Shown: positions 4,849 through 20,216 of the stretch, piece after piece
How positions within the stretch are numbered: position 1 is the stretch's first letter
Layout of the letters: each line of letters opens with the position of its first letter
From: a virus
DNA length: 21,365 nt
Strand: one strand, 5' to 3'
IMG/VR virus record: IMGVR_UViG_3300006736_001109
Span: 1 to 21,365 of that record
Notes under the pieces: model-generated
Database searches by the model: none
Told to the model about the DNA's origin: nothing
The model's input: only the letters and a program-made list of their open reading frames with translations
Made by a program: the position numbers and the translations under genes

Positions 4849-6047
4849 CGATCTTGGAGAAGTGGCGTTTCTATCTGGAAGACCTTGAGTCACCCGACCT
4901 CTACCTAGACTGGGGATTCTACTTTCTGATAAGCAGTTGTCTTCAGCGTAGGATATGGACTTCGCAGGGTATCAACGCAATCTACCCGAACCTGTTCATG
5001 CTGCTGGTTGGGCCACCCGCTTGTGGCAAGAGTCGTTTGATCTCCATGATCTCTGACATCATCGAGGACAACGAGCTAAAGATAATGAGCAAGGACAAGA
5101 AACAAACTGCTCCCCTCTTCCCCTACACCGCTGACAGCATAACAGCAGAAGCTCTCAGCAGATACTTGGCTGAAGAATGCACCAAGGTTTTTACCCTAGA
5201 GGATGGTAGCGACTATGTTCATGCGTCCTGTACCATGTTGATAGAGGAACTCGGAGTCTTCCTAAAGAAGCGTACCGAGGACACCGTGAATATGCTCAAC
5301 CAACTCTACGATGCTCGCAACTACCGCTACTACACAAAGAAGCAGGGTAAAGACAACGTACAAAACGTGTGCGTGTCGATGATAGCAGGCACTACCCCGG
5401 CGTTCATCCGTGAGTGCTTCAACGAGAACCTCATATCCCAAGGCTTCACCTCCCGCTTCATTGTAGTCTACCAAGACGAACCTCGATTCCTCCGACAGTT
5501 CACCGGCTTCACGGACAAGCACATCCAAGCTAGGGCAGACGTTGTCCAGCACGTAAAGAAGCTGTCCAAACGCTGTGGCCCAGTACCCATGTCCGAAGAG
5601 TGCGCTGCCTACCACAAGAAACGCTACGAAAGCGGCTCATACATAAACAACAGAATCAACAGCAGTCCCAAGCTGGATCTATACTACGCCCGGAAGAACA
5701 TCCACCTACAAAAGCTGGCCCTCGCGGTGCAAATGGGCAATTCAGCCGAATCTGAAGAGGTTACGCTGGAGGCATTTAAGTACGCAGAGAAATTCATTGC
5801 AGAGACCGAGCTTTTCATGCACCGTAGCTATGACCTAACAGGCAGAAATGTGATCCACGAGTTCACACGGAAGCTTGGTGAGTATGTGAATGGTAAAGAG
5901 GACGGTGTATCCCACAAAAAACTATGGCTAGACTGGCACAGCGACCTAAAAAAGGACGAGTTAGAAGCAGCGCTAGAGTTTCTAATGCAAACCGATCAGA
6001 TCGTAGCCGCAAAGAAGGGCGGCAAGTTAGTCTACCTGCCAAAATAA
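4845..6047 (+). CDS. DUF3987-like AAA+ ATPase, probable replicative helicase
   Basis: From GTG 4845 this is a 400-aa protein. A Walker A motif (GPPACGKS, K62) follows a hydrophobic strand. Walker B is TMLIEE (E134/E135). A later strand ends in AGTTPAF (sensor-1 position), and GFTSRF carries a candidate arginine finger, R204. The C-terminal third is helical and ends in a winged-helix-like segment (KKLWLDW, then LEAALEFLMQTDQI). This layout matches the DUF3987 group of phage and plasmid primase/helicase proteins, minus any primase domain. It directly follows the DNA polymerase with coupled translation, so it most likely unwinds DNA at the phage fork. An ATG at 4830 would add five residues. Helicase activity is inferred from family and context. 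Confidence 0.78.
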   Translation: MTILEKWRFYLEDLESPDLYLDWGFYFLISSCLQRRIWTSQGINAIYPNLFMLLVGPPACGKSRLISMISDIIEDNELKIMSKDKKQTAPLFPYTADSITAEALSRYLAEECTKVFTLEDGSDYVHASCTMLIEELGVFLKKRTEDTVNMLNQLYDARNYRYYTKKQGKDNVQNVCVSMIAGTTPAFIRECFNENLISQGFTSRFIVVYQDEPRFLRQFTGFTDKHIQARADVVQHVKKLSKRCGPVPMSEECAAYHKKRYESGSYINNRINSSPKLDLYYARKNIHLQKLALAVQMGNSAESEEVTLEAFKYAEKFIAETELFMHRSYDLTGRNVIHEFTRKLGEYVNGKEDGVSHKKLWLDWHSDLKKDELEAALEFLMQTDQIVAAKKGGKLVYLPK

Positions 6048-6340
6048 AGATAGCCAACCTCAACTTCAAGTTAAAGTTCATCAACTCTGACAGCAGGGAG
6101 ATTTGTGACAGTCACGGGTGGGTAGATTTTAACAGAGAGCTTATCGCATTAAACCCGGAACAGTCAGCCGAGGCCTTGCATGATACATTTCTCCATGAGG
6201 TGATTCACGCTATCTGTTACGTCATGTCTGTTAAGATGGAAGAGGGTGACGAGCAGATGACACGTAGGCTCGCCACAGGTTTGTGCATGGTATGGAAAGA
6301 TAATAAGAAAGTATTCGAGTGGTGGCAAAAACTAATCTAA
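6044..6340 (+). CDS. HExxH metallopeptidase-like protein, non-ATG start likely
   Basis: The protein contains LHEVIHAI, an HExxH zinc site, preceded by an extended strand that looks like the usual first strand of these small phage peptidases. It is followed by an acidic run (EEGDEQMTRRLA) that may supply a third ligand. Family members are around 100 residues and start just before the KIKIANLNF-like strand. No ATG, GTG or TTG exists there in frame. An ATA at 6044 overlaps the previous gene's TAA as ATAA, mimicking the ATGA couplings seen elsewhere, and would give 98 residues. The nearest in-frame ATG is at 5924, deep in the helicase gene; it would add a basic, low-quality 40-residue tail. No substrate is known; such proteins might act on DNA-protein complexes like SprT, but this is a guess. 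Confidence 0.6.
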   Translation: MKIANLNFKLKFINSDSREICDSHGWVDFNRELIALNPEQSAEALHDTFLHEVIHAICYVMSVKMEEGDEQMTRRLATGLCMVWKDNKKVFEWWQKLI

Positions 6341-6494: not shown

Positions 6495-7472
6495 CTACCA
6501 GCTATCATTCCAGTACCAACCCCATGACTCGTACAGCTTATCGTTAATGTTTCTAGTGTTCCACTCTCTGTTGTAACGACCTATCCCACCCATTATGACG
6601 TACCAGTTGTGGTTGTTGGGGTCTTCTATGGTTGATCGGTAACGAAGCCATGCCAAGTCACGGTTGTTTTGCGAGACTAAGCGTGAGTTCATAGAAGTTG
6701 GGCTTCCCGCAGCCAGTGGGATGTTCTTGGTATCTTCCTCCAGCCAACGCTTGAATTCTACGTGGCCGTCGATGAAGGAGACTACAGACCCACCGTTATG
6801 GTAAACACCGGGCCAGTCTTGCGAGAAGATTTCCTTATCCCCTGACTTCAGAGGCACAACCCTGAAGTTACCGCTGTTTATAGAGGCGGCTGGCATCTCG
6901 ATAAACGTGAATATCTGTGAGGGGGACGCCACATCTGCGTACTTATGGTACGTCTTATACTGTGTGTCGTGCATAAACGGCCAGCCTGACCACCCACCTA
7001 CGAAGACATTCATAGAGTAACTGCGAGGGCGAAGCTGCTGCTGTACGTTCGTACCACCATCCCCACTAACAGCCTCCCAACGGCCTGTCCACCTAACTGT
7101 TGACTTGTCACCGGGACAGCGGAATATCCGCATCCCCGTGTAAGGTTTCAGCGGAGACCAGAACAAAGCCCTGTCTGTCTGCGCCCACGTTGTCCAACCT
7201 GACGAGCCGCTCATCGAGTCAGCAACCCACGCCCAACGTGCTGACGGCTCATTGTGCCACGCACTTGCGTAAGGGAAACGATCATCATGGTCGCCAGCAA
7301 ACTCCTTAACAGCCATGTTCAACTGCTTATGGTTGGATAAACAAGCTGCCTGCCAACCTGTCTGCTTAGCAGAAGCCAGTGCCGGTAACAGTAAGGCGGC
7401 AAGTATCGCAATGATTGCAATTACAACCAGTAATTCAACCAGCGTAAAGCCGCGCTTTTTGCTAACAGACAC
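6495..7472 (-). CDS. Phage-encoded type II pseudopilin-like protein (H-X9-DG type)
   Basis: From GTG 7472 this is a 325-aa protein with a short basic leader SVSKKRG, then FTLVELLVVIAIIAILAALLLPALA. The prepilin peptidase site is G8/F9 and the conserved Glu is E13. This N-terminus is followed by the CLSN and KQL helix pattern of PulG-like proteins, an RCPGD box, and H225 with nine residues to D235-G236, exactly the H-X9-DG signature. Such proteins are abundant in Verrucomicrobiota, Planctomycetota and Lentisphaerota, so the gene was probably acquired from a host of that kind. The GTG start leaves 31 bases after the upstream gene; an ATG at 7574 would add a 34-residue non-signal tail overlapping the nuclease gene. 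The protein should enter the inner membrane and be processed by host prepilin peptidase. Its phage role is unknown. Confidence 0.85.
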   Translation of the reverse strand: MSVSKKRGFTLVELLVVIAIIAILAALLLPALASAKQTGWQAACLSNHKQLNMAVKEFAGDHDDRFPYASAWHNEPSARWAWVADSMSGSSGWTTWAQTDRALFWSPLKPYTGMRIFRCPGDKSTVRWTGRWEAVSGDGGTNVQQQLRPRSYSMNVFVGGWSGWPFMHDTQYKTYHKYADVASPSQIFTFIEMPAASINSGNFRVVPLKSGDKEIFSQDWPGVYHNGGSVVSFIDGHVEFKRWLEEDTKNIPLAAGSPTSMNSRLVSQNNRDLAWLRYRSTIEDPNNHNWYVIMGGIGRYNREWNTRNINDKLYESWGWYWNDSW

Positions 7473-7503
7473 ATCAGCAAAGCTACGGAGTAAAAACCTA
7501 CAG

Positions 7504-7941
7504 TCAAGAAGTTTTGTCCGTATCCAGTAAGTCCCAAGCGTTCTCGTAGACTGCGTACTTGCACTTTTTACCACCGTAAATCTTTGTGGTTATGCAGTTA
7601 ACTGTGTCGAAGGGCATCACCCAGAACTTGAGGCAGTCCAAGGCACAGCAGATAAAGTAGTCTACTGTGGATTTGTCGTACTTGGATTTCGTCTTGCAAC
7701 CGTGGTTGGTTTGAAATTGAAAGTTGGGGGTAGAGGAGTTTGCGTGTAAGACCAAACCCTGCGTGGTCTTTATTTGTATCCGCCAGATCTTATCACCCTT
7801 ACTGGCTAGAAGATCGAAGGAAGAGCTGTCACTTAGTGGGTGAGCTATGCCCCAGCCATGTTCGAGAAGTTTTTCTGCAACCAGAAACTCCCCTCGCTGT
7901 CCAATGGTTCTGCGATTCTTTGTTGGATCTGATTCTGGCAA
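7504..7941 (-). CDS. PD-(D/E)XK nuclease, PDDEXK_5-like
   Basis: This 145-aa protein has the layout of small PD-(D/E)XK endonucleases. A first helix carries the conserved Glu (RGEFLVAEKLLEHGW), an Asp follows in SSFDLLAS, and QIKTT provides the Q/ExK strand. This is the pattern of the PDDEXK_5 group, which includes group I intron homing endonucleases and resembles Holliday-junction resolvase folds. No intron is visible here. The start appears to be TTG 7941; the upstream ATG at 7964 is in a different frame. It lies between the giant virion gene and the pseudopilin gene, an accessory position. It could be a free-standing homing nuclease, a resolvase of replication intermediates or an anti-competitor nuclease. 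The fold is fairly sure; the role is not. Confidence 0.75.
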   Translation of the reverse strand: MPESDPTKNRRTIGQRGEFLVAEKLLEHGWGIAHPLSDSSSFDLLASKGDKIWRIQIKTTQGLVLHANSSTPNFQFQTNHGCKTKSKYDKSTVDYFICCALDCLKFWVMPFDTVNCITTKIYGGKKCKYAVYENAWDLLDTDKTS

Positions 7942-8005: not shown

Positions 8006-11000
8006 TCAGTAACCCTTGGTCGCCAGAAAGTCTCGAACACTATCTTGAATCAACTTCTTACGAACTTGCGAGAAGCCTTCGTCCCTATACTCACGTAGCA
8101 TAATGTCACGCACGGCTTCTTCGCTCTTCGTCCGCGCAATAAAGTCTGCGAACCTACGGGCTTCCCTTAGTGAGTAGGCATCTGTTACGTTGGGAGAGAG
8201 CTTTTTGTGCTTGACGTAGCCCTGTTGGAGTAGGCGCTTGAACTTGTTCGGGTCTACGCCCTCCTTGGTTTGTGAACGTTTCCACGCACCCTCTAGGAAC
8301 GGCTTTAAGGTATCTTGCAGTTGCTCCACAGTTTCAGAGTTACGGAAAGCAGACGCAGGTGTTTTTTCGTACCTGTCAAGGTTCGCCATAAACCGTGAGC
8401 CGTGATCTCCACGATAGAGGCGTTTAAAGACCTTGAGGTCACGATTCATTTTTTCGCGCTCAAATTCAGAAGCCCTACCCCTAAACGTGCCTGTACTCAA
8501 AGCCTTATCTAAGGTCTGCGCAACCTCTGTGTGGGCCAAAGCTTGATTACGGGCAATACGTAGCGTCTGGTTAAGATTGGTCATTATGTCTTCCAAATAA
8601 CGCAGCGCGGAAGATGAGTCAGTTCCCGGAAGAGGCCATACATTTCCCGATCTCATGTAGGCCAGTGTTGACATCCCGAAACCCTTGTCAAAAACAAGAG
8701 CCTCCAAGGCTGGGAAAGTCACAAGAGAGAAGTCTTCCGCGCCGCTCTTGCCTGTATACATCCTGACAGCATCGTTGCCCAGCGCAGACAGTATACCAAA
8801 GTAACCACTCAGGTTAGCTAGGTGCATTGCGTGATAGATGAAGTCTTCCGCGCCAGATGGTGACTCCAGAACTTCTTCAAGCGATGGCTCGTAGCTTTCT
8901 TTGGCATTCATCATCTTGCCAACCTCGTTGAGCGCAACGCCGGTAACAGCACCACCAAGCGTAGCCTTGATGAGCGGTCTAAAATCTCTTTTGCCGTAGG
9001 TTTTCTTGTCAAGGATGGGGAGTATTATATCCTTCATATAACGGTTGTACTTCTCCACAGACCATCTAGACAAAGACAGGACATAGCTGCCCTTGCCTCG
9101 GATCATCGTAGACGGCACACCACGAACACCGTACGTCCCTTGATTGATCTCTACCCAAGCTGTCGCAAGTTTATGAAGATCGCCTTCCGTAACTTCCGTG
9201 GGATTCTTCCTAAGCTTAATGGTATCAACATCTGCAAACCGCCCCATCGTTGTAAGTATACGCTGCACATGGGGGTCTTTGGACGAGCTGTTAAGGTAGC
9301 TACGCATCAACAACTTTCCTAAGCTAAACTGTATTGCCCGTGTGCCTTTTTCGAACAGCTCGCGACCTGACCACTTCTGCGAGAAATCGGCCACGGTAGA
9401 AAAGGAATCTGCTACACGATCTGCGCTGTCCATTGCGAACTCGATAGAGGAAAACTTGTTACGGTTTGCACCGTGTCGATGGCTTTGTTTCCACGCATCC
9501 CCAAAGTGCGTTACCGCCTTGAGCATCAAAGGATAGTCCTGTAGCCTCATGTAATGGGAAGCTTTCTCGAAAGCGGTAACAAAATCACGCGCACCAGAAT
9601 AAAGGCCAAGCCAGTTTGCAGTTACCATCCGGTTGGCTCTCATAACAAACAAATCCATATCGCTATGAAAACCGGCGTGAACCTCGTCCAAGTTGTTAAA
9701 GGTTTTCTGAGCGCGGTTGGCGTAGTCTACATCTACGTCATCACCAAAAATTTCCTTTAGCGTTGGTGTCGTTGCTTCCCTCTCTCCAACTTTACGGTGT
9801 GTATACGTACCCATCTGATCGGGAAGATCGCGTATCGCTCTTACGATGTTGTCACTCTCTATTTGGGTATACCACGCCATATCCTTGGCGAAACGCCCAG
9901 CATACCTTTGCGCCCGTATGAACGGGTCAGGGTCTACCAAGTCTAAAGGCATACTCAAACCCTCTGCCTTTCTTAACGCCTGGAATTTTGACGCACCAGC
10001 AAGGCTTTTAGTTTCTCCACCAACTGTCGTATAACTGTCCTTGTTGCTGATAACTGCGACATACTCAGAAAGCATATCACGCAATTCATTCTCGGTAGCC
10101 GTAGACTCTTCTCCCCAGTGTTTGATTATTTTTTCCTGTAAATCCTTCCCCTCTTTTGTGTGAGACTTTTTCCGAAGAATTGATGAGGCATCACGACTTA
10201 ACATATACGGATCATAGTTCTTATTCACATGATCTGGGTCGTCACTAACTTTTACCCAACGCTTTTTTCTCCAGACTAACGGCCCGTTGGCCGCGTGTTC
10301 CAAGCGTGTCTCCGAGAAGAACCTATCAAGTGACTCGTTGGCTGCGTGAAGCTTGCCTGTGATTTGCGGCTCAAGCTTGTCGAGTTTTTCCTTTAACTTA
10401 GCAAACTCTGGAGTGTCGGAAAAGTCGCGCCTTTCTCGTCCTTTGACCATACGACGCAAAGTTCTGTATTCTCCAAGTAACAGCACATCTGCTTTGTTTA
10501 AACCTAAAGTCTGCATCTCCATAATCAGAGGCTCTGCGAATCTGCCGATATAACGCTTCTCCACCATTTCCAACCTGTTGTGCGCGTCCCTAATATACAA
10601 AGCCTGCTTCTTGGTGGCATCTGTAATATCAGCATTCACCAAACCTTTGAACGGCCTTACCAACAGTTGATCTGTCTCTGCTATGGAGTATTGAAGCTTC
10701 TGAAACCACCAACGGGGGTCAACAAGCATCGTATACTCTTTGCCCTCGAAGGGTGAAAGTATGCGCCGCTCAGGATCGAAAGCTCCTACGTCTGTGAGAA
10801 ACTTGTCGAAGGTTTCCGCCATGTGCTTGGCTCGATCACGGCTGGAGGCGAAGAGTGCGGCCTCATCAGCAGAAAGCGTACGTTCACCACCACGGGCTGC
10901 TTGGAACTTTATGCTTTCCCTGCGGCTAAAGCGTTTGCTGAGCGGTATAACCTTGTTGGTCTCTGAGTCACGAACCACAGGATCAGCGGATTTAATCTGG

Positions 11001-14000
11001 TTACTTTTGTAGACAATGTAGGTATCACGAAGCTTGGGATTTTCTACCTCATGCCTATTCCGATACAAAATAGAATCAAATCCGTGTCGGTCTAGCAACA
11101 AGGCAATTTGTTGCGTTTGTTCTGTCTTAGTTAATACCCTCCATCTACCACCGGCCTCCAAACGCTTTAGGTCGTTTTTCAAGGCAGCTTGCCGATTCAT
11201 GTGGTCGTGCCAACTTGCAGGTGCGGCTTCACCAGAAGGTAATCGGTTGACCTCTCCACGCTGAGTTAGCCAAGCATTGCTCTCAGCAGTTTGCCCTGAA
11301 TGAAATTGCATCAACACATCTGTCCGCGCAGGGAAAGGTCGTCCAGTTTCGTGTGTTAAGTCCAGCGTTTGTATAAGACCCTTTATACCCCACGCGCCGG
11401 GATCATCACCAACAACGGCTGGGTTTTCAGCCTTAACGTAAACATTAAGTACGTTGCTATCAAGCGACTCCGCACGTGCAGCGATAGATTCTGGTGTGCT
11501 GGGTAGGTCGCCCATCATACTTGATACGTCCACACGCTTTCCTGAAATACCTTCAGCAACCTTGGGGTCTGCGGTAATGTGAAAGCCTAGTTCGGACGCG
11601 CCTTCTGCTACATACTTTTGAGTAACAGAGTCTAGGTGCAATTTGTCTTGCCAAGGTGGAATTCCACCAACACCAGTACCAACCTTCTCAGGATCAAAAA
11701 CCTCAAACTTTCCTTTTGTACCATGATACCCCCGAACCTTATAACCGCCAAGCTCCGCAGCCTGCGCCGTCAAGGCTCGCAACGCCTGCATATCATCGGT
11801 AGAAAGTGCGCGTTCGTACGCTGCGTCCACCTTCTGAAACTTGGCCTTGTCGATTCCCTCAGTGTCCTGCAAAAGCTTGTCTATCATGCGACTTGCAGGT
11901 GCGCCACTTTCTGCAGTTCCCGGCTCGTCTTTAATACCCAATTGACGCTTTACGCCCGCCATTAACTCAAGGCCCTCCTCCTTGGAAACTACCTCTTCCC
12001 CCCTTGAGTTGAAGCGTTTCTTGGCTTCCTGAAATTCCAACTCTTTCCAAGGATCGCCACCAGCACGTTTCTCATAATAAGCATCGTCCCGTCTGATAGG
12101 TCTCCCGGCCCTTACATCCTCCAATACCCCCTGCTTTAGCTCTGCCGTATCTTGCGTACCATAAAGATGTTTGGCAAAACCTGCAACCATGTCATCATTG
12201 AACATGAACGGCATATCATGCTCGTACTTGAGAAGCATATAGTTCTTTAGCTGTTTATCTGTCAGCCTGAAACCGAGCCTGTCTTTCCAGCGTACCTTGA
12301 GTTCTCCCACCAGCTTCGTAAACTTGTGCTGATTACGGGTTTCGACTTTTTGGGTCATCGCTCTGCCCAAGAACTCGACAGCTCTTTCTTCTTCAGCAAA
12401 AAGTTCCAGAAAATCTTGGCGTAGTTTCTGATCTCTCGGATTAGACGAATACTGTAAGTCATCCAACCAGTTGTGGAAACCTTCGTGGGCTATGGTGTCT
12501 TTCGACATACGCCGAGGATCGACAGTTACGGTTCGTCTGTCGTAAGCAGCAAACCCACCGGCTAGTCCGCCATCTGGATGGTCGATGCTTCTGAGAGCGG
12601 CTGCCAAGTTGAAACCTCTGACCAAGGCAAGCCTATTCAGTATATCTATAACTTCCGTGTCTAGTGGTTTTAGCTTTCTTACTGGTTTACCTGTAGCCAT
12701 GCGCCTTTCTTTTTCCAGCTCTCTTCTAGCTTCACCAATCTTCTTCCGCATACCTACGGCATGATCGTGGAATGCCTTTTGTATTTTAGCGGCTTCAGGC
12801 TTACTTACAAATTGCCAACCTACACTACCATCTTTGTGTGGTACGGCCTTTTGCACGCGGCCATTTGCCAAGACTCTTACAGGATCAGTGAGCCAAACAC
12901 CCAACCTGTCTATCAACGGCTCGCCTTCACTATCTACAACATTCTTGCTGGCTTCTCTTGGAACCTCGGCTGCCTTGACAGTCCTAGGTTTGCCAGTAAC
13001 AGGGTCTGTAATCTTCGCAGGTTTGGCTGCACTAGAGAACAGCTTTAGTATGGCCCTCTCATGCCCCTTGCTAACACCCGCGTCCAGCACCTTGTCTGCT
13101 TTATCTATCTTTTTCTGCGCTTTGTTTATCGCAGTTTGTGCCTGCTTTTTTTCTCTGGCTGAATAGAATACCCCACCCCGGTCAGCAAGCTTGCGCTTGG
13201 CAACTGCTAGTTCCTGTACACCCTCTGCGCGTTGGCCAAGTGCCTGTTGCTTGGCAGCCTCCGATGCACCATAAACTTCACGATACCTCTCTGGGGATAC
13301 CTTTTGTGCAGCAGCAACCTCGTCTGCTGTCAAAGGCACAGCCCCTATATCTGGTCGCTCCATAGACCTAGCGGCTGGCCCCGGTTCAGCAGGGTCTATA
13401 AAACCAGTACCTCTTGTCTGGTGCAGCTTCCACCCCGATGCATCCTTCTGCCATAAATCAACCTTGCCGGTAACCTGTGCTTCAATAGCGGCAACAAGGT
13501 CTGTATCTGTAGGAGTTGATGCGTCCTCTATCGCGCCAACCTTACGCCCTATGTCGCTTTCGTAAATCTTGCCCCGGCTGAATACGCTTGTGTAGCCTAC
13601 GTCACCTATCTGGTCTCTGAGCGTGGACAAAGCTGGTATAGGTTCACGCCACGGGTTAAACATTGTGTTAGGATCGCGACCTTTGGCTGTGGCTCTTTTT
13701 TCACCTCTTTCAACAAGCTTGGCTAGTCCGGGTGGCTTGAACGTAGGCCGTTGTAAGCCTGCGCCGATACCAGCCGCGATGGCTAGTCTACTAGGATCGA
13801 AGTCTCCGTGATAAGCTTGAAAACCTCCCTCGATGGCTGTGTCAAAAGTCGCGCCGAGTGCCATCTCTTTTAGTGCTTGGCTTTCTCCCGGTGCAACTCT
13901 TCCTAACGGTGATTCAAAACGAAGCTTAGACTGTGCTGGGCCTGCTAATCCAGAACGAGTTGTAAAGCTAGTTGGTGTTGGAACATCTGCCTTATGAAGC

Positions 14001-14560
14001 CCCTTGCCCCAACGAAGTCTACCTGTTGCTGCCTGCCCCAGCCCTTTTACACCTTTGACCAGTTGCGTTGGCGAAGGTCTGAAAGCTAACGTCGATGGAA
14101 GCATCGAACCAGCAAAGGCGTAGTTGGGATTTGCCATATACGCCTCTTGCCGTTTCCTGTCCAGCGCGGCCTGCTGCTCGTCAGTAAGAAAAACTTCCTC
14201 ACCAATATCCTGCGCGAAGCTACCAGTCAAAGAACCAATAATACCAGCACCGCCCATAAGAGCTAATCCGGGCCAGAAGCCTACGCCAGTGCTTGCCAGA
14301 TAACCACCAGCACCCATCATAAAAGTAGCTGCTCCTACACCTGAACCAGCGTGTTCCCCAGCGGCTGTCAACATTGATTCACGGCCACTTATATGCTCGT
14401 TTAGATACTCTTCAAGATCCTCTTCAGGTATTGCGGCATACAAATTAGGATCGTAACCCATATCACGTAGCTTGGCGTCCAGAAGTAAATTAGACCCCGT
14501 TTGGTAACGGCTTTCAAGAAGTTTGCTAGGCCTCCTGTCAACTATGTGTAGTTGAGGCAT
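8006..14560 (-). CDS. Giant internal virion/ejection protein with metallopeptidase and ART-like domains
   Basis: This 2184-aa protein is the largest gene. Residues 71-116 form a glycine-rich hydrophobic region suited to membrane insertion. Residues of about 415-520 are coiled-coil-like. H692-E-G-F-H696, followed by EERAVEF, makes an HExxH zinc metallopeptidase-like site. From about 940 to 1190 there is a polyvalent-type ADP-ribosyltransferase-like domain: YHGTKG (945-950), GFHITADPKVAEG (from 992), FDSILYRN (about 1161) and a closing KSNQIKSAD. It is followed by the linker PLSKRF (from 1206) that often ends such domains in phage polyvalent proteins. The remaining ~950 residues are helix-rich, like large polyvalent-associated and T7 gp16-type internal core proteins. 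Its position after tail and internal-virion genes supports packaging in the particle and ejection with DNA. Enzymatic activities are inferred from motifs only. Confidence 0.8.
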   Translation of the reverse strand: MPQLHIVDRRPSKLLESRYQTGSNLLLDAKLRDMGYDPNLYAAIPEEDLEEYLNEHISGRESMLTAAGEHAGSGVGAATFMMGAGGYLASTGVGFWPGLALMGGAGIIGSLTGSFAQDIGEEVFLTDEQQAALDRKRQEAYMANPNYAFAGSMLPSTLAFRPSPTQLVKGVKGLGQAATGRLRWGKGLHKADVPTPTSFTTRSGLAGPAQSKLRFESPLGRVAPGESQALKEMALGATFDTAIEGGFQAYHGDFDPSRLAIAAGIGAGLQRPTFKPPGLAKLVERGEKRATAKGRDPNTMFNPWREPIPALSTLRDQIGDVGYTSVFSRGKIYESDIGRKVGAIEDASTPTDTDLVAAIEAQVTGKVDLWQKDASGWKLHQTRGTGFIDPAEPGPAARSMERPDIGAVPLTADEVAAAQKVSPERYREVYGASEAAKQQALGQRAEGVQELAVAKRKLADRGGVFYSAREKKQAQTAINKAQKKIDKADKVLDAGVSKGHERAILKLFSSAAKPAKITDPVTGKPRTVKAAEVPREASKNVVDSEGEPLIDRLGVWLTDPVRVLANGRVQKAVPHKDGSVGWQFVSKPEAAKIQKAFHDHAVGMRKKIGEARRELEKERRMATGKPVRKLKPLDTEVIDILNRLALVRGFNLAAALRSIDHPDGGLAGGFAAYDRRTVTVDPRRMSKDTIAHEGFHNWLDDLQYSSNPRDQKLRQDFLELFAEEERAVEFLGRAMTQKVETRNQHKFTKLVGELKVRWKDRLGFRLTDKQLKNYMLLKYEHDMPFMFNDDMVAGFAKHLYGTQDTAELKQGVLEDVRAGRPIRRDDAYYEKRAGGDPWKELEFQEAKKRFNSRGEEVVSKEEGLELMAGVKRQLGIKDEPGTAESGAPASRMIDKLLQDTEGIDKAKFQKVDAAYERALSTDDMQALRALTAQAAELGGYKVRGYHGTKGKFEVFDPEKVGTGVGGIPPWQDKLHLDSVTQKYVAEGASELGFHITADPKVAEGISGKRVDVSSMMGDLPSTPESIAARAESLDSNVLNVYVKAENPAVVGDDPGAWGIKGLIQTLDLTHETGRPFPARTDVLMQFHSGQTAESNAWLTQRGEVNRLPSGEAAPASWHDHMNRQAALKNDLKRLEAGGRWRVLTKTEQTQQIALLLDRHGFDSILYRNRHEVENPKLRDTYIVYKSNQIKSADPVVRDSETNKVIPLSKRFSRRESIKFQAARGGERTLSADEAALFASSRDRAKHMAETFDKFLTDVGAFDPERRILSPFEGKEYTMLVDPRWWFQKLQYSIAETDQLLVRPFKGLVNADITDATKKQALYIRDAHNRLEMVEKRYIGRFAEPLIMEMQTLGLNKADVLLLGEYRTLRRMVKGRERRDFSDTPEFAKLKEKLDKLEPQITGKLHAANESLDRFFSETRLEHAANGPLVWRKKRWVKVSDDPDHVNKNYDPYMLSRDASSILRKKSHTKEGKDLQEKIIKHWGEESTATENELRDMLSEYVAVISNKDSYTTVGGETKSLAGASKFQALRKAEGLSMPLDLVDPDPFIRAQRYAGRFAKDMAWYTQIESDNIVRAIRDLPDQMGTYTHRKVGEREATTPTLKEIFGDDVDVDYANRAQKTFNNLDEVHAGFHSDMDLFVMRANRMVTANWLGLYSGARDFVTAFEKASHYMRLQDYPLMLKAVTHFGDAWKQSHRHGANRNKFSSIEFAMDSADRVADSFSTVADFSQKWSGRELFEKGTRAIQFSLGKLLMRSYLNSSSKDPHVQRILTTMGRFADVDTIKLRKNPTEVTEGDLHKLATAWVEINQGTYGVRGVPSTMIRGKGSYVLSLSRWSVEKYNRYMKDIILPILDKKTYGKRDFRPLIKATLGGAVTGVALNEVGKMMNAKESYEPSLEEVLESPSGAEDFIYHAMHLANLSGYFGILSALGNDAVRMYTGKSGAEDFSLVTFPALEALVFDKGFGMSTLAYMRSGNVWPLPGTDSSSALRYLEDIMTNLNQTLRIARNQALAHTEVAQTLDKALSTGTFRGRASEFEREKMNRDLKVFKRLYRGDHGSRFMANLDRYEKTPASAFRNSETVEQLQDTLKPFLEGAWKRSQTKEGVDPNKFKRLLQQGYVKHKKLSPNVTDAYSLREARRFADFIARTKSEEAVRDIMLREYRDEGFSQVRKKLIQDSVRDFLATKGY

Positions 14561-14563
14561 CGT

Positions 14564-15682
14564 TTATGGAAATCTTCTGCTTGGATTAACTGGTGCGTTT
14601 GTGTTACCCCAGTTAAATGTCCTGTTGGGATCCCAGCCTGAGCTGCTTCCTCTTCCTCCTCCTCCGCCGCTTCCGTCTCCAAATGGATTAAATGGCGGAG
14701 TATAAGACTCTGCCCTAATCTTGGCAGCTTCCGCTTGCATCAACATAGCCTTCAACTGACCAAGCTTTAACCGCTGCTCTTCCCGCTGAGGCCCACCCAA
14801 ACGCAGAAACTCCCGTCCCTCGGCTGTATTAACAAGCCACGATTCAAGAGACTCAATCGCCACGATTTCCTGTTTCTTGGTAGCTATACTCGCATCAGCT
14901 TCCGTTTGCATCAGTTTTTCACCCACCTTTTGGGATACGGCAAGACGGTGTGTGTCCAACAATGTTTTAAGCTCCAAGCCCAAGACTTGACTGTCAGCCA
15001 CCCTCTTTGCGTAATCACTGGGGAGATTTATGTGTACCTGCTTGGCTAAATCGTCAGCGCGTCTTTTGGTCTCCACATCTATCTGGCCTGTTACAGTCTT
15101 TTGTTGCGCCTGCTTCAACGCCTCAGCCTGTGTCAAAGACGGGGTTATGTTACGCTGCAACACAGCAAGTTCTGCCTTTTGACGATCAGTTATTTGTGGT
15201 GGCGCGGTTTTTGCGTACTCTTCTGCAGACCTATACATCATAGATGGGCCTGTTCCTTGTGCTTGATCCGCAGCAAACCGTTGCCGTGGCGTAGTTGTAG
15301 GCAAACCTCCCAAACGCTGCCGAGTCTCTTCGTCTGCAATCTGTCTCGCCCTATTCTGCCGTATAAGCTGATTAGCAAAGTCTTGTTCTTGGTTAAACTT
15401 CTCTACAGCAGCAGCCCGTCTTGCACCCTCGCTACGCTGCCGCATAAGATCATTCATCTTACGCTGCTGCTCAGGCTTTATCGCAGCACGTATAGCAGTT
15501 AAATCTTCCCTACGCTGGCGACCACTACCGTAACCAAACGGAGACACCTTACGCTGCTGCGGGACATACGCACCTTGAGCGCGTAACTCCTCCATTAACC
15601 TACGCTCCTCTTCGTCGAGAGGTCTGCCCTCATAAAAGGGGCTTGCTATCTGACCCAATAAGTTTGAAAAATTGTTTGCCAT
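14564..15682 (-). CDS. Glutamine/arginine-rich internal virion-type protein
   Basis: From ATG 15682 this is a 372-aa protein (MANNFSN...). An in-frame ATG at 15703 would add seven residues, but AAGGA at 15690-15694 is correctly placed for the inner ATG. The protein is hydrophilic and helical, rich in Q, R, E and A for about 300 residues. It ends in a glycine/serine-rich tail (GDGSGGGGGRGSSSG) and a short proline/asparagine end. It has no signal peptide or membrane span. Such composition and its place immediately upstream of the giant ejected protein resemble the internal core proteins (gp14/gp15-type) of podoviruses. Sequence similarity to a named family is not evident, so function rests on context. 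Confidence 0.68.
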   Translation of the reverse strand: MANNFSNLLGQIASPFYEGRPLDEEERRLMEELRAQGAYVPQQRKVSPFGYGSGRQRREDLTAIRAAIKPEQQRKMNDLMRQRSEGARRAAAVEKFNQEQDFANQLIRQNRARQIADEETRQRLGGLPTTTPRQRFAADQAQGTGPSMMYRSAEEYAKTAPPQITDRQKAELAVLQRNITPSLTQAEALKQAQQKTVTGQIDVETKRRADDLAKQVHINLPSDYAKRVADSQVLGLELKTLLDTHRLAVSQKVGEKLMQTEADASIATKKQEIVAIESLESWLVNTAEGREFLRLGGPQREEQRLKLGQLKAMLMQAEAAKIRAESYTPPFNPFGDGSGGGGGRGSSSGWDPNRTFNWGNTNAPVNPSRRFP

Positions 15683-15689
15683 TTTATAG

Positions 15690-15694
15690 TCCTT
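15690..15694 (-). promoter_or_regulatory. Ribosome binding site (AAGGA) overlapping the upstream stop
   Basis: On the minus strand AAGGA stands 7 bases before ATG 15682, and its two A residues belong to the TAA stop of the 308-aa gene. It decides the inner start of the 372-aa gene. The same stop-embedded arrangement (TAAGGAG) occurs before the 308-aa gene at 16628-16633. Confidence 0.65.
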
Positions 15695-16619
15695 AATTGC
15701 CAAGCCATTGATCTATGACGCTCTTACCTTGTTTCATCGTACCCAATAAACCACCTTGATTTATACCTGTCATTATATCTTTAGGCAAACTCGGCATCTG
15801 GTTAGAGTAGTTCTGCACCGGCTGCACACCTTGGAATCCTGCGGCTATCTGGTTAGTGCCGCTACCCCTGCCTAGGGTGGCCTGTACAGGATCGAAACCT
15901 GAGCGCGAGCCTGCCATGAAATTTGTGGCTGTATTCAAGGCGTTACCCAACGCAGCCCTTTTGCGGTCTAGCGCAGAACCAAACTGCATGGCGTTCTCTA
16001 TAGCCGTGAGGTTTCCACCGCCACCGGCTGAACCCCTCTGCATATTCCGTCGTGCGTTCATACGCTCAATCTCTGCACGCTCACCACCAGAAAGACCGCT
16101 CATGTTTATACTACCGAGAAGGTCTTGTACCTTCTGTCTCCCTGTCTCTCTGGCCTGCAACCACGGTTGGTCAGTTACAGCCAACTGATCCATTACGTTC
16201 TGAGCCATCTCTGGCCCTTGAAGATCCATAATGGTCTTATCTGTACCAGCAGCCAGCCTACGTTTCCAATGGTCTGCCTCGCCCTCAAGACCTACGTAAT
16301 CAACCGCACCGGGTACAAATCCCGGTTTATAGTCTTTGATACCCTCGCTACCTTGTGCAGTTTCCCAAGCTAGACGTTGTTGTTGAGGGGTGAACTGCCT
16401 CTGCATATTGAGGTCTTTCTGCAGCATGGCTTCTACCTCGTCACGATGCGCCCCCATTATACGTGGGTATGACTCCGCGTAAGCCTTACCGTAGTCCTCG
16501 CCTACATCTTTAGGAGATGTCTCTGTTGCCCTACCTACACCGTATTCTATGCCACCACTAATTAAACTGGGGATAATGTCATCCCAACCGATGCCTGTTC
16601 CAAGTAATCCATTTCCCAT
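15693..16619 (-). CDS. Internal virion-type structural protein
   Basis: This 308-aa protein starts with a glycine-rich, mildly hydrophobic segment (residues 1-30, including IIPSLISGGIEYG). A long helical, Q-rich part follows (MLQKDLNMQRQFTPQQQRLA), then a glycine stretch (RGSAGGGGN) and a glycine/asparagine-rich end. It lacks catalytic motifs I can recognise. The gene has one of the best ribosome binding sites in the window (AAGGAG, 8 bases upstream), suggesting high late expression. Its amphipathic N-terminus, composition and neighbours (nozzle-like protein upstream, giant ejected protein downstream) point to an internal core or ejection protein. This is positional inference. Confidence 0.68.
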   Translation of the reverse strand: MGNGLLGTGIGWDDIIPSLISGGIEYGVGRATETSPKDVGEDYGKAYAESYPRIMGAHRDEVEAMLQKDLNMQRQFTPQQQRLAWETAQGSEGIKDYKPGFVPGAVDYVGLEGEADHWKRRLAAGTDKTIMDLQGPEMAQNVMDQLAVTDQPWLQARETGRQKVQDLLGSINMSGLSGGERAEIERMNARRNMQRGSAGGGGNLTAIENAMQFGSALDRKRAALGNALNTATNFMAGSRSGFDPVQATLGRGSGTNQIAAGFQGVQPVQNYSNQMPSLPKDIMTGINQGGLLGTMKQGKSVIDQWLGN

Positions 16620-16627
16620 AGCTCTAT

Positions 16628-16633
16628 CTCCTT
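16628..16633 (-). promoter_or_regulatory. Strong ribosome binding site (AAGGAG)
   Basis: AAGGAG on the minus strand lies 8 bases before ATG 16619. It shares bases with the TAA stop (16632-16634) of the 80-aa gene, so termination and re-initiation are likely coupled. Confidence 0.7.
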
Positions 16634-16874
16634 ATGATGTTATTACCCCTGCCGTTCTCAAACTCGCCAGCAACGCTATAATTGCCGTTTGATTATTTGC
16701 TGCACTATCCCCTGACGGGTTTGTTACAGCCACGCCTTTAAGTACCACACCCCTTGCCGAGGTCGTCGCATCCGCCACGGTAATCCCGGCTAACCAACTG
16801 TCAAAGTCATCCTTGCTAGTGAACAAAGTCACAGTGTCCGTCTTACTTATCGCACTTGTTACTGCTATTGGCAT
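16632..16874 (-). CDS. Small structural-type protein, head-fibre/decoration-like end
   Basis: This 80-aa protein is neutral and rich in Thr, Ala and Ser. Its C-terminal part (NNQTAIIALLASLRTAGVIT) resembles the short helix plus 'LR.AG.I' ending common in small phage head-fibre or baseplate-like proteins. It starts 1 base after the 795-aa gene stop without a Shine-Dalgarno sequence. It sits among tail and internal virion genes, so a virion role is likely, but the similarity is short and I cannot name the family with certainty. Confidence 0.58.
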   Translation of the reverse strand: MPIAVTSAISKTDTVTLFTSKDDFDSWLAGITVADATTSARGVVLKGVAVTNPSGDSAANNQTAIIALLASLRTAGVITS

Positions 16875-16875
16875 A

Positions 16876-19263
16876 TCATGCTGAGTATGCTTGGTTAATG
16901 AGTGACGACTTCAGCGTCACATCCTTGGTTTGTATGCGTAACGTAGACATTTTAGGCGAACCCTTCAAGTACAACTTGAAAGAGACCTTCCAGCCTTGGC
17001 TACTAGATTGATAGTTAAAAGTCATGTTTGCGTGTGTATTTGTGTTGATTTCGGAGGGGTAAGTGACAGGATACTTCAGCCCTGACCTTATCAGCGGAAT
17101 GCTTCTTACCTGAAAACCACCGTTTACACCGGCAGTTCTCGCGTCATCCACATACTGAGAGACAGCAAAAAATCCAGCGTTATAGCCCAGTGCGTCATCG
17201 TCCACGCCCTTGTTTGACAAGATTCCTGTTGCGGCGGTGCTAGAAAAACCGAATTTCGTGCCTACTGTACCCGCCTCTGCAAAGACCTTAAATGCGAGAG
17301 TAGCTCCGTTATCAAAAAAGAGTGTTGAATCATGTGGCGGAAAACTGCTTGAGGTAACACCCGTACTACCCTCCTTGAAACCATCTACGGTTATGTAGTT
17401 GGATGCAGCAGAAGACAAACCCGTAGGATACTTACCGGGTGGGTATCCACTTGCGTTGTTTATCTTGAAATTGTTGAAGATGTTAAAAGGCTTGTTGAAC
17501 AAAACATTGATGCTCAAAGGCTTTATCTCAACCTTGGGGTCTTGCGAACAGAAACTTTTAGTCTCCACGATGGCAAGATCATACTCTTCAGCACCATAAA
17601 GCTGCTTCAACCAAAAGCCCTGCGAGTCTGGGTCATCGGTTACTGCGTACAAAGCCTGAACACCTGCTGTCGTAACACCCACAGCCATGTCCCGAATCGG
17701 TTTGCATAATACACTCTTGTGTGTAAAAATAGCAGAGGTGCTATCTCCGTCCCAACTTTCTATTCCATTCCCTGAGTCATCGTGCATATCCAGACTCACA
17801 AACTTCTTGGTGGCCATATCGTAGACCACAGTTACCTGCTGCTGCGGGAGATTGGTCAGCAGGTGGAATAGCGCGTAACCATCGTGGATTATTGCACACT
17901 GGAAAGTGCCATCCTGTAGAACGCCCTTGAATATATCAGAGATCGGACGAGAGAAGATGTCGTTTCTGGCCAAGGCTTCAGCCTGCTGTACCGCGTTGAA
18001 AGAGCGTATCCCGTGCTGATCTATGAAGGCAAAGTCACCCAGCAAATCCACAAACGAGTTGTGATTCACCGGCCCTGTGCTAAACAGATACTTCTTGGTG
18101 AAGGTCGGCTCACCGAAGATCGTGTTCGTTATGTCGGGCTTAATGGCGTAGCTTGAGTTTGCCGCACCAACAAAGAGTTCCTCCGTGTTCAGGGAACGCA
18201 AGCAGGTTATTGGATCGTTGCTTATCGTGTAGGCTACAGCCTCGACACCGCCTATGGCTTCCTTGTCGTGTATCTTACCGCCAGACTCGTTCAGCGGAAT
18301 CATGAAATCCAGAGGACGCCCACTAACACTATGGTAGAGTTTCGTCCCGTCAACGGAGGCCACATACAACTTACCACCGTGATGTGCCATCTGCTTGCCT
18401 ATCGGCACATACTCACGGAAACCAACAACACCTAGCTCGTCATTCTCAACCCTATTGCCAGTTAACACACCTACAAATGCAGTAGCACTGGCAACGGCAT
18501 CAAAAGAAGTTGTAATTGAACCCCCACCAGCAAACTTAATCACAGAACCGGCGTCAATATCCACAGGCAAAGCATCCACAGCGAAAGCCCACGTACCTGT
18601 AGCGTAACCGTTGCTGTTGTTTATCGTAACGTAATAGTTCTGCCACTGGTCATAGCCCATCAACTGTCTGGCTGTAACCGTGGTATCTGCGGCTATCTCG
18701 ATCAAATTGGGTTGGTTAGTGCCATCCTGTACGACGATACCTGCGACTGTTGGGGGTATCCGCTTAGTGTAGTCTGACTGTGCGCCCACGTTGGGGTTGT
18801 CCGATGAGGTAGACTTGGCTGCAAAGTTGTCGTACGAGGGCGGAACTACTACTGTATGGACAAACTCTGCCGTGGTTGAAAGTCTTATCGTGCCTGTACC
18901 TGTGGTAACGCCAGTAGCATACGCTACAGGTTTTACGTGTGTACTTGTGGTACTCCAGACTACCGAGAGAGCCTCTGCGTCTTTGGACTTCTTGAGACAG
19001 ACGCCATCCACAAAGATAAAGAAGTACGGGTCTACAAAGATTATCCCCTGTACCTTTGGGTCTGTAGATGTGTAAGCCCCAGGATTAGCTACCACAGGAA
19101 AGAGCTGGTCAGTATCATACACCTTCGACTTTTTGATGGCCTCCAGCGCATCGTGCCGATTTCTAACATTAAACGCCAGCCTGTAGGCATCTTCAGGAAC
19201 CCGTGTGTCATCGACACTTAGATTCATTCCGCCACCAAAAGACCGTTGTATGAAGTCTGCCAT
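16876..19263 (-). CDS. Tail nozzle-like protein (T7 gp12-type tail tubular protein B)
   Basis: This 795-aa protein begins IQRSFGGGMNLSVDDTRVP and continues with YRLAFNVRNRHDALEAIKKS. That opening (a GG motif, then a short segment naming residues that precede 'N.r.R.g.l..i') is seen at the start of podoviral nozzle/tail tubular B and related stabilisation proteins. The rest is beta-rich with repeated blades, as expected for a beta-propeller nozzle, and ends in strand-rich receptor- or platform-like domains. Length fits T7 gp12 (about 790). It directly follows the adaptor-like gene with a TGATG overlap, the same order as gp11-gp12. Assignment is by architecture and synteny rather than by catalytic motif. 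Confidence 0.72.
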   Translation of the reverse strand: MADFIQRSFGGGMNLSVDDTRVPEDAYRLAFNVRNRHDALEAIKKSKVYDTDQLFPVVANPGAYTSTDPKVQGIIFVDPYFFIFVDGVCLKKSKDAEALSVVWSTTSTHVKPVAYATGVTTGTGTIRLSTTAEFVHTVVVPPSYDNFAAKSTSSDNPNVGAQSDYTKRIPPTVAGIVVQDGTNQPNLIEIAADTTVTARQLMGYDQWQNYYVTINNSNGYATGTWAFAVDALPVDIDAGSVIKFAGGGSITTSFDAVASATAFVGVLTGNRVENDELGVVGFREYVPIGKQMAHHGGKLYVASVDGTKLYHSVSGRPLDFMIPLNESGGKIHDKEAIGGVEAVAYTISNDPITCLRSLNTEELFVGAANSSYAIKPDITNTIFGEPTFTKKYLFSTGPVNHNSFVDLLGDFAFIDQHGIRSFNAVQQAEALARNDIFSRPISDIFKGVLQDGTFQCAIIHDGYALFHLLTNLPQQQVTVVYDMATKKFVSLDMHDDSGNGIESWDGDSTSAIFTHKSVLCKPIRDMAVGVTTAGVQALYAVTDDPDSQGFWLKQLYGAEEYDLAIVETKSFCSQDPKVEIKPLSINVLFNKPFNIFNNFKINNASGYPPGKYPTGLSSAASNYITVDGFKEGSTGVTSSSFPPHDSTLFFDNGATLAFKVFAEAGTVGTKFGFSSTAATGILSNKGVDDDALGYNAGFFAVSQYVDDARTAGVNGGFQVRSIPLIRSGLKYPVTYPSEINTNTHANMTFNYQSSSQGWKVSFKLYLKGSPKMSTLRIQTKDVTLKSSLINQAYSA

Positions 19264-20216
19264 CAGCGGAAGGTTTTCGTATACTTGTTGATGAGGGAGA
19301 CCGTAAGCTTGTCGTGCGGATGCTTGTCGAACCTGACCTTCTGCAACTGACCGCGTTGCAAATCCGAGTTACGCCTGCCCATGCTCCGAGAGGCTTTCTT
19401 GTCGTACAACATGGCCTCCTCGATCTTGCCCTGCTCCTCCATATAAAGCTGCATCACCTTGTTCACGATGATGTTATCGTAACCATCTGCCGGGAACTCG
19501 TCGCTGTCCTTGCTGAGATAAGGAAGCTTCTTCTTGTAGACTACCTCCAGCGTATGATTGTCGTCCTGTGCCGCAGTGGATTCCCACGGAAACTCGCTGA
19601 CATCCACTATCAGATACTGTGACTCCTTCTCGTTGTTGGGTATGACCGCAACCACGGTGTCGTCTGACTGCTTGATACTGATATCGTAAGTGCAGACATC
19701 CGACTTAATGATGGATTCTATCGACGTAAAGGTAGTCGAGAAAGTATTGCTTGTGCTGCTTAGTGTAACATCCTCGAAGGTTCTGGAGATACCTGCAGCA
19801 GACCCTACGACTGTTATCGTTATCGTGGACATCGCAGCAGTTACCACGGCTTTCATACCTGAGAAGCTGGTGGGAGTTACCTTGAAAGGTTCGTAGCCCT
19901 TGATACGCCACGTACGGTCATCCTGTTCCAAGGTGTTGTATGCGTAGCGTTCGGTAAGGTTGGACAGACTCCAAGGGTACTTACTTTCTTTTTCCCTTAC
20001 GGCCCGTATGGAGCTTACGTTGCTGGGCAGAGCTATAGTCTTGTTACCTTGGACATAGAAGGAGTCCTCCACAAGACTCCCGACCATATCAGATTCCTCG
20101 TAGAGTTCCTGCGCCCCCTCGTTGAGGTAGTCCAGCATAATGGAACGCTGGTGATTATCGTTCGGATTAATCCCCAGCTTCTTCCCTGCTCTATCCAGTA
20201 TGTATTCTACACTCAT
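19263..20216 (-). CDS. Tail adaptor-like protein (T7 gp11-type tail tubular protein A)
   Basis: This 317-aa protein has a helical N-terminus (ILDRAGKKLGI, then IMLDYLNEGAQELYEE) and an inserted Thr/Ser-rich beta region around residues 115-210. A helical C-terminus follows (VNKVMQLYMEEQGKIEEAMLYDKKA) with a basic end. Helical ends around a beta insertion, with the long C-terminal helix carrying tyrosine and glutamate, fit podoviral head-tail adaptors/gatekeepers. It is longer than T7 gp11 (about 196 aa); the beta insertion accounts for the difference. It lies just upstream of the nozzle-like gene in coupled translation, and its own start overlaps the preceding small gene as ATGA. Confidence 0.7.
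   Translation of the reverse strand: MSVEYILDRAGKKLGINPNDNHQRSIMLDYLNEGAQELYEESDMVGSLVEDSFYVQGNKTIALPSNVSSIRAVREKESKYPWSLSNLTERYAYNTLEQDDRTWRIKGYEPFKVTPTSFSGMKAVVTAAMSTITITVVGSAAGISRTFEDVTLSSTSNTFSTTFTSIESIIKSDVCTYDISIKQSDDTVVAVIPNNEKESQYLIVDVSEFPWESTAAQDDNHTLEVVYKKKLPYLSKDSDEFPADGYDNIIVNKVMQLYMEEQGKIEEAMLYDKKASRSMGRRNSDLQRGQLQKVRFDKHPHDKLTVSLINKYTKTFR

What the first reader, a model, noticed from the sequence alone, without database searches (positions are those of the whole stretch)
8006..14560. A 2184-aa virion protein combining HExxH peptidase and ADP-ribosyltransferase-like domains
Seen: HEGFH at 692-696, YHGT at 945-948, GFHIT at 992-996, a terminal KSNQIKSAD plus PLSKRF, a glycine-rich hydrophobic segment near the N-terminus and a long helical C-terminus. 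Known: polyvalent phage proteins carry such mixtures and are injected with DNA. Inference: this protein may be delivered into the host at infection to cleave and ADP-ribosylate host targets before phage genes are expressed.
Basis: partly seen in the sequence, partly recalled or inferred. Interest (0 to 1): 0.7.

Follow-up and report, generated by a model that had tools for sequence, protein, structure and literature searches.

The report
Phage protein with swappable effector slot
A very large protein in the virion-gene block of an uncultured bacteriophage combines a predicted metal-dependent protease with one exchangeable cargo slot that here holds a predicted ADP-ribosyltransferase; close relatives carry other cargos or none in exactly the same place, so this phage group appears to swap pre-loaded effectors like cassettes.

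Summary
In detail: an intact 2184-aa ORF (minus strand, 8006-14560) carries HEGFH (692-696), YHGT (945-948), GFHIT (992-996) and the QIKSAD...PLSKRF end. The ART reading is supported: Pfam ART-PolyVal E=6e-7, 0.5 bit under cutoff, and the closest relatives pass the cutoff. The zincin rests on motif conservation only; structure prediction failed. The gene lies in a virion-gene block; no proteomics exists. New: residues ~907-1217 are an exchangeable cargo slot. Relatives share N-terminus, HExxH region and C-terminus, but the slot holds ART-PolyVal domains, a YHVTT domain, four other sequences, or nothing. Against a relative with a 99% identical C-terminus, the slot is the only non-matching block of the protein. 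Core and slot-edge phylogenies conflict (AU p 1.6e-65). Four near-identical phages hold three cargos and none. Cargos recur in distant or unrelated phage proteins. The slot is bounded by a repeated K[FY]Q-type peptide, present once when the slot is empty. Best reading: a polyvalent-type ejected protein with a fixed carrier and swappable effector, possibly released by cleavage at the linkers. Injection, cleavage and ADP-ribosylation are inferred. New variant of a known kind.

The parts
8006..14560 (-). 2184-aa carrier protein with cargo slot (polyvalent-type protein)
   Evidence: intact ORF; relatives in 15 viral contigs
14207..14374 (-). N-terminal glycine-rich hydrophobic segment, residues 63-118
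   Evidence: hydropathy peak kept in all N-terminally complete relatives
12356..12643 (-). HExxH peptidase-like region, residues 640-735, with EE at 724-725
   Evidence: invariant H, E, G, H and EE in alignment A13; no Pfam or PDB match; fold prediction failed
12473..12487 (-). HEGFH, residues 692-696
   Evidence: HEG[FLW]H in 14 of 14 members that contain it
12020..12037 (-). linker 1, EFQEAK, residues 842-847
   Evidence: [KE]FQ after DPWxxL in every relative
11825..11842 (-). linker 2, KFQKVD, residues 907-912, left edge of slot
10910..11842 (-). exchangeable cargo slot, residues 907-1217
   Evidence: only block under 30% identity against L003 (880-1220); cargo differs or is absent in relatives
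10982..11728 (-). ART-PolyVal-like domain, residues 945-1193 (H946, H994, D1162, Q1188)
   Evidence: PF18760 E=6.2e-07; conserved columns
10877..10909 (-). linker 3, KFQAARGGERT, residues 1218-1228, right edge of slot
8009..10885 (-). conserved helical C-terminal carrier region, residues 1226-2184
   Evidence: 53-99% identical in relatives, 24-29% in L020 and L021; helical model
14564..15703 (-). 379-aa gene directly upstream in the block (role unknown)
   Evidence: co-directional and syntenic in relatives
15693..16619 (-). 308-aa gene of the block (role unknown)
16632..16874 (-). 80-aa gene, head-fibre-like
   Evidence: phrog_20838 E=6.4e-06
16876..19263 (-). 795-aa gene, probable tail component (size and position of T7 gp12; no detectable homology)
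19263..20216 (-). 317-aa gene, probable head-tail or tail component
   Evidence: position and conservation; no homology to T7 gp11

Best explanation
It is a polyvalent-type internal (ejected) virion protein of a novel, probably short-tailed phage group. A fixed carrier (N-terminal hydrophobic segment, HExxH peptidase-like region, roughly 950-residue helical C-terminus) holds one exchangeable effector slot, filled here by an ART-PolyVal-like ADP-ribosyltransferase. Shown here: the ORF, the ART homology, conservation of the HExxH region, the position and exchange of the slot, and the repeated linker at its edges. Inferred: the protein is packaged, leaves the virion with the DNA, is opened at the K[FY]Q linkers (perhaps by its own peptidase), and the ART then modifies a host protein with NAD+ before phage genes are expressed.
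For: ART profile match; HExxH conserved. Slot is the only non-matching block against L003; L013/L014/L015/L019 share C-termini 97-98% identical with three different cargos or none and DNA 90-99% identical next to the slot. Core and inter-linker trees conflict (AU p 1.6e-65 and 8e-73). Cargos recur elsewhere: ART in L008, L015 cargo 90% identical in distant homologue L111, L018 cargo 64% in unrelated L109. Linker repeated at both edges, single in empty alleles. Gene context: end of a co-directional block after terminase, coat-size and tail-spike genes in relatives.
Against: No structural confirmation of ART or peptidase; no detectable homology to T7 gp16 or to any cultured phage protein; no virion proteomics; strand-2 Tyr of the ART is His; no experiment shows cleavage at the linkers. 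All sequences are metagenomic assemblies, so a single odd allele could be an assembly chimera, although the agreement of many makes this unlikely as a general explanation.
Confidence: 0.65

Rival explanations
1. Same ejected carrier and slot, but the repeated K[FY]Q linkers are only flexible, recombination-friendly joints: the cargo stays attached, and the peptidase acts on a host protein rather than on the carrier.
For: L003 keeps a 21-nt exact repeat at the slot edges; the empty L019 linker looks like a left/right hybrid of the L015 copies; T7-type and N4 vRNAP proteins are packaged unprocessed (for N4: PMC5512222).
Against: In the window gene the two linker copies share only 9 of 21 nt, too little for homologous recombination, yet the KFQ core is kept; distant homologues repeat their own versions at the slot (KFQPL in L020, RFQ[EK]IE in L021).
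Confidence: 0.4
2. The ART in this slot is catalytically dead or serves as a binding or filler domain.
For: Strand-2 Tyr replaced by His in the window protein, L004 and L008, and apparently in L002 and L010; four relatives do without any cargo.
Against: H946, D1162 and Q1188 are invariant across these domains, including L008 in an otherwise unrelated protein. His at this place occurs in other ART-fold enzymes of the Tpt1/KptA type (general knowledge, not tested here).
Confidence: 0.2
3. The protein is not in the virion: it is made late in the infected cell and acts there (assembly, lysis timing, host modification or exclusion of other phages).
For: No proteomics; no homology to a proven virion protein.
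Against: Last gene of a contiguous virion-gene block in all relatives; large size, hydrophobic N-terminus and helical C-terminus resemble ejected proteins; polyvalent proteins are predicted to be transferred with DNA (PMC5512222).
Confidence: 0.15
4. The slot differences are assembly artefacts of metagenomes (chimeric contigs joining unrelated ART-encoding sequence).
For: All sequences are metagenomic; cargos are shared between phages of similar samples (L015 and L111).
Against: Every cargo is in frame between the same linkers in independent samples; the YHVTT cargo occurs in two divergent carriers at 65% identity, the window-type ART in two at 78%; four empty alleles keep one linker.
Confidence: 0.04

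Closest known systems
Polyvalent proteins of phages (Iyer et al. 2017, PMC5512222), e.g. Roseovarius Plymouth podovirus 1 vRNAP with metallopeptidase and ART
   Same: very large phage protein joining a zincin-like peptidase and an ART of the ART-PolyVal type; predicted to be transferred with DNA
   Different: no RNA polymerase or other listed domain seen; carrier region new to Pfam and PHROGs; one discrete slot whose content is exchanged between near-identical phages; repeated linker peptides at its borders
T7 internal core protein gp16 / P22 ejection proteins
   Same: position at the end of the tail-gene block, size, helical make-up, presumed ejection (what it works like)
   Different: no detectable homology to gp16; carries peptidase-like and ART domains
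T4 Alt
   Same: packaged phage ART acting early (general precedent)
   Different: Alt is of the R-S-E clade and a separate protein (PMC5512222); this one is ART-PolyVal-like within a giant carrier
Polymorphic toxins
   Same: constant delivery part with exchangeable effector domains
   Different: the variable part is internal, not C-terminal, and the carrier is a phage protein; no immunity gene was looked for systematically

Membership tests
Polyvalent proteins (Iyer et al. 2017) | large phage or plasmid protein joining domains of unrelated activity | tested here: met
   ART-PolyVal match plus conserved HExxH region in one 2184-aa ORF
Polyvalent proteins (Iyer et al. 2017) | transfer into the host with the DNA | not testable with these tools
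   gene context only
ART-PolyVal (PF18760) | profile score at or above the curated cutoff | tested here: inconclusive
   window protein 30.7 against 31.2 bits; orthologous domains in L004 and L008 44.5 and 44.9
Tox-ART-HYD2 clade | His in strand 1 | tested here: met
   H946 in YHGT, invariant
Tox-ART-HYD2 clade | Tyr in strand 2 | tested here: not met
   GFHIT where most relatives read GFYFT; therefore not filed as a canonical HYD2 member
Tox-ART-HYD2 clade | Asp in strand 5 | tested here: inconclusive
   D1162 is invariant but strands could not be assigned without a structure
Zincin-like metallopeptidase of polyvalent proteins | HExxH with a further Glu in a downstream helix | tested here: met
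   H692, E693, H696 and EE 724-725 invariant in A13
Zincin-like metallopeptidase of polyvalent proteins | zincin fold | tested here: inconclusive
   AlphaFold pLDDT 43; no Pfam or PDB match
T7 gp16-type internal core protein | homology to gp16 | tested here: not met
   hhalign probability about 1% and 0.4%; no Foldseek match with E<=0.001, on a weak model

The most novel reading that the evidence does not exclude
The repeated [KR][FY]Q-type inter-domain peptide is both the cleavage signal of the embedded metallopeptidase and the cassette border, so these phages carry a self-releasing effector cartridge in which whatever domain lies between two linker copies is packaged, injected and cut free. 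Each phage lineage would have its own linker sequence matched to its own peptidase (KFQEA-GER, KFQPL, RFQEIE; possibly RFMP[AE] in other proteins).
Probability: 0.22. Interest if true: 0.85.

Novelty: new variant of a known kind. Interest (0 to 1): 0.62.

Why it matters
Polyvalent proteins are known mainly from domain catalogues. Here a natural allelic series (same carrier, different or no cargo, near-identical phages) shows one discrete slot, its borders and its exchange. That makes two open questions directly testable: whether injected phage proteins are cut into separate effectors, and how phages renew the effectors they carry pre-loaded. It also offers several unnamed cargo domains as candidate anti-host or counter-defence effectors.

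Tried and rejected
AlphaFold of residues 560-1225 (14 rows): pLDDT 43, not used. AlphaFold of the C-terminus: helical, pLDDT 55; Foldseek against PDB gave no match with E<=0.001. PDB sequence searches with the whole protein, C-terminus, the two tail-block genes, peptidase, ART and YHVTT cargo: nothing significant. T7 gp16, gp12, gp11 by hhalign: no homology. Cultured phages: no relative of the protein. GTDB genomes: no relative of the C-terminus nor of the pilin-like gene, for which the patterns came from its variable C-terminus, so the host stays unproven. YHVTT cargo (L005/L014) against the ART profile: no hhalign match, so calling it ART-like is only a visual guess. The excess of [KR][FY][QM] over shuffles is significant in the window protein and several others but not all, and counts sites outside the slot, so it is weak evidence by itself.

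Full report
Observation. The reading frame 8006-14560 lies on the minus strand and encodes 2184 residues without interruption. The window is an entire IMG/VR record of 21,365 bases and probably only part of the phage genome: relatives reach 40-53 kb.

What the domains are. Residues 945-1193 match Pfam ART-PolyVal (PF18760) at E=6.2e-07, 30.7 bits against a cutoff of 31.2. The homologous domains in L004 (78% identical) and L008 (68%) score 44.5 and 44.9 bits. The ending NQIKSADPVVRDSETNKVIPLSKRF is a standard cap of this ART in dozens of other phage proteins. The usual strand-2 motif G-[FVI]-Y-F-[TS] reads G-F-H-I-T here, so the Tyr of the H-Y-D active site described by Iyer et al. (PMC5512222) is His; H946, D1162 and Q1188 are invariant in the alignment. 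The HExxH region has no Pfam or PDB match, but HEG[FLW]H is kept in all 14 family members that contain it, with an invariant EE 28 residues after the second His, and distant homologues have HExxH in the corresponding part. Structure prediction of both domains failed, so the folds rest on sequence.

The slot. Relatives were found only among viral contigs of metagenomes and one genome project. In all of them the N-terminal part, the HExxH region and the roughly 950-residue C-terminus align end to end where the contig covers them, but a stretch between two copies of a short peptide, K[FY]Q-x-A-x-GER, differs. Cargo lengths: window 299 aa (ART-PolyVal-like), L002 271 and L010 281 (divergent ART-PolyVal), L004 the window's type of ART, L005 260 and L014 249 (a shared YHVTT domain, 65% identical), L003 91, L013 174, L015 171 and L018 153 (four different sequences without a Pfam match), and zero in L006, L016, L017 and L019. 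Comparing the window protein with L003, the slot (880-1220) is the only block below 30% identity in the whole protein; the same is true for L013 against L015 (891-1067).

Evidence for exchange. L003 is 95% (the 500 residues before linker 1) and 99% (C-terminus) identical to the window protein, but its segment between linkers 1 and 2 is 44% identical to the window's and 90% to that of L006, whose other parts are only 51% and 59% identical to L003; L005 and L018 share 97% there against 50% and 64% elsewhere. Trees conflict: the clade of window protein, L002 and L003, which the core supports at 100/100, is rejected on the segment (AU p 1.6e-65), and L003 with L006 is rejected on the core (p 8e-73). 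Cargo type changes at least 8 times on a 13-tip core tree (cargo types assigned by me). L013, L014, L015 and L019 have C-terminal regions 97-98% identical and DNA next to the slot 90-99% identical, yet carry three different cargos and none. The empty L019 linker is identical to the left copy of L015 for 22 nt and to the right copy for the last 19 nt, as expected for recombination between two copies (read from the sequences); L003 keeps a 21-nt exact repeat at the slot edges. The L015 cargo recurs at 90% identity after the HEVTH motif of the distant homologue L111, and the L018 cargo at 64% in an unrelated 2915-aa protein. The ART recurs in the otherwise unrelated L008 protein.

Context. The gene is the last of a co-directional block of 317, 795, 80, 308, 379 and 2184 aa; its ATG follows the previous stop codon by 3 nt. 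In longer relatives this block accompanies a terminase (phrog_2), genes of portal, scaffold and coat size (no family match), and a tail-spike gene with an S74 chaperone domain. I saw no gene of tape-measure type, so a short-tailed phage is likely, but the 317- and 795-aa proteins show no detectable homology to T7 gp11 and gp12, and no cultured phage carries the protein. Placement among ejected proteins is therefore by position, size, hydrophobic N-terminus and helical C-terminus: inference, not demonstration.

Mechanism. Most likely the protein is packed in the head, leaves with the DNA, and delivers the slot domain as an effector; the HExxH domain either trims the protein or acts on the host. 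The repeated linker is a candidate processing site because the K[FY]Q core persists when the DNA of the two copies has diverged (window: 9 of 21 nt identical), and because distant homologues repeat their own versions, KFQPL in L020 and RFQ[EK]IE in L021, while RFMP[AE] is repeated in other ART-bearing proteins. The recombination-joint reading remains open, and the two are compatible.

Literature. Iyer et al. 2017 described polyvalent proteins, found ART and zincin domains among their commonest parts, proposed peptidase processing, and noted that P1 DdrB is cleaved while N4 vRNAP is not. My limited searches found no report of a single exchangeable slot with repeated borders in an ejected-protein carrier; absence there is not proof of novelty.

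Verdict.

Noticed in passing
window 6495-7574 (-): Pilin-like gene just downstream of the big gene: N-terminal methylation motif (PF07963 E=8e-9, TIGR02532) and an H-X9-DG-like end (TIGR04294 18.9 bits, cutoff 19). Kept at 78-97% identity in L002 and L003, not seen in L004-L006. H-X9-DG pilins suggest a Planctomycetota/Verrucomicrobiota-type host (general knowledge); host not proven.
   Followed up: partly
window 7504-7941 (-): PD-(D/E)XK endonuclease-like gene (PF11645 E=4.6e-16) directly after the carrier gene, kept in the relatives.
   Followed up: no
window 5924-6340 (+): SprT-like metallopeptidase gene (PF10263) overlapping the end of the primase/helicase-like gene in another frame, kept in several relatives.
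   Followed up: no
L103:1688-2470 (-): A relative of the window phage encodes a 260-aa sigma-54 activator-type AAA protein (PF00158 E=1.5e-46); related genes are in L105 and L006. Possible control of host sigma-54 transcription.
   Followed up: no
L104:2611-3000 (-): Small 129-aa protein matching the mechanosensitive channel beta-domain (PF00924 E=3e-5) near the tail-spike gene.
   Followed up: no
L100 (2451-aa ORF), L008, L049, L050, L066: Other large ART-bearing phage proteins repeat a short RFMP[AE]-type peptide, up to six copies in L100, much as the window family repeats K[FY]Q linkers.
   Followed up: partly
L111:1-4488: Distant homologue carrying the L015 cargo followed by a second segment that looks ART-like (LHHGTNDIPSILQEGF...GRGIYMT), i.e. 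apparently two cargos in one protein.
   Followed up: partly
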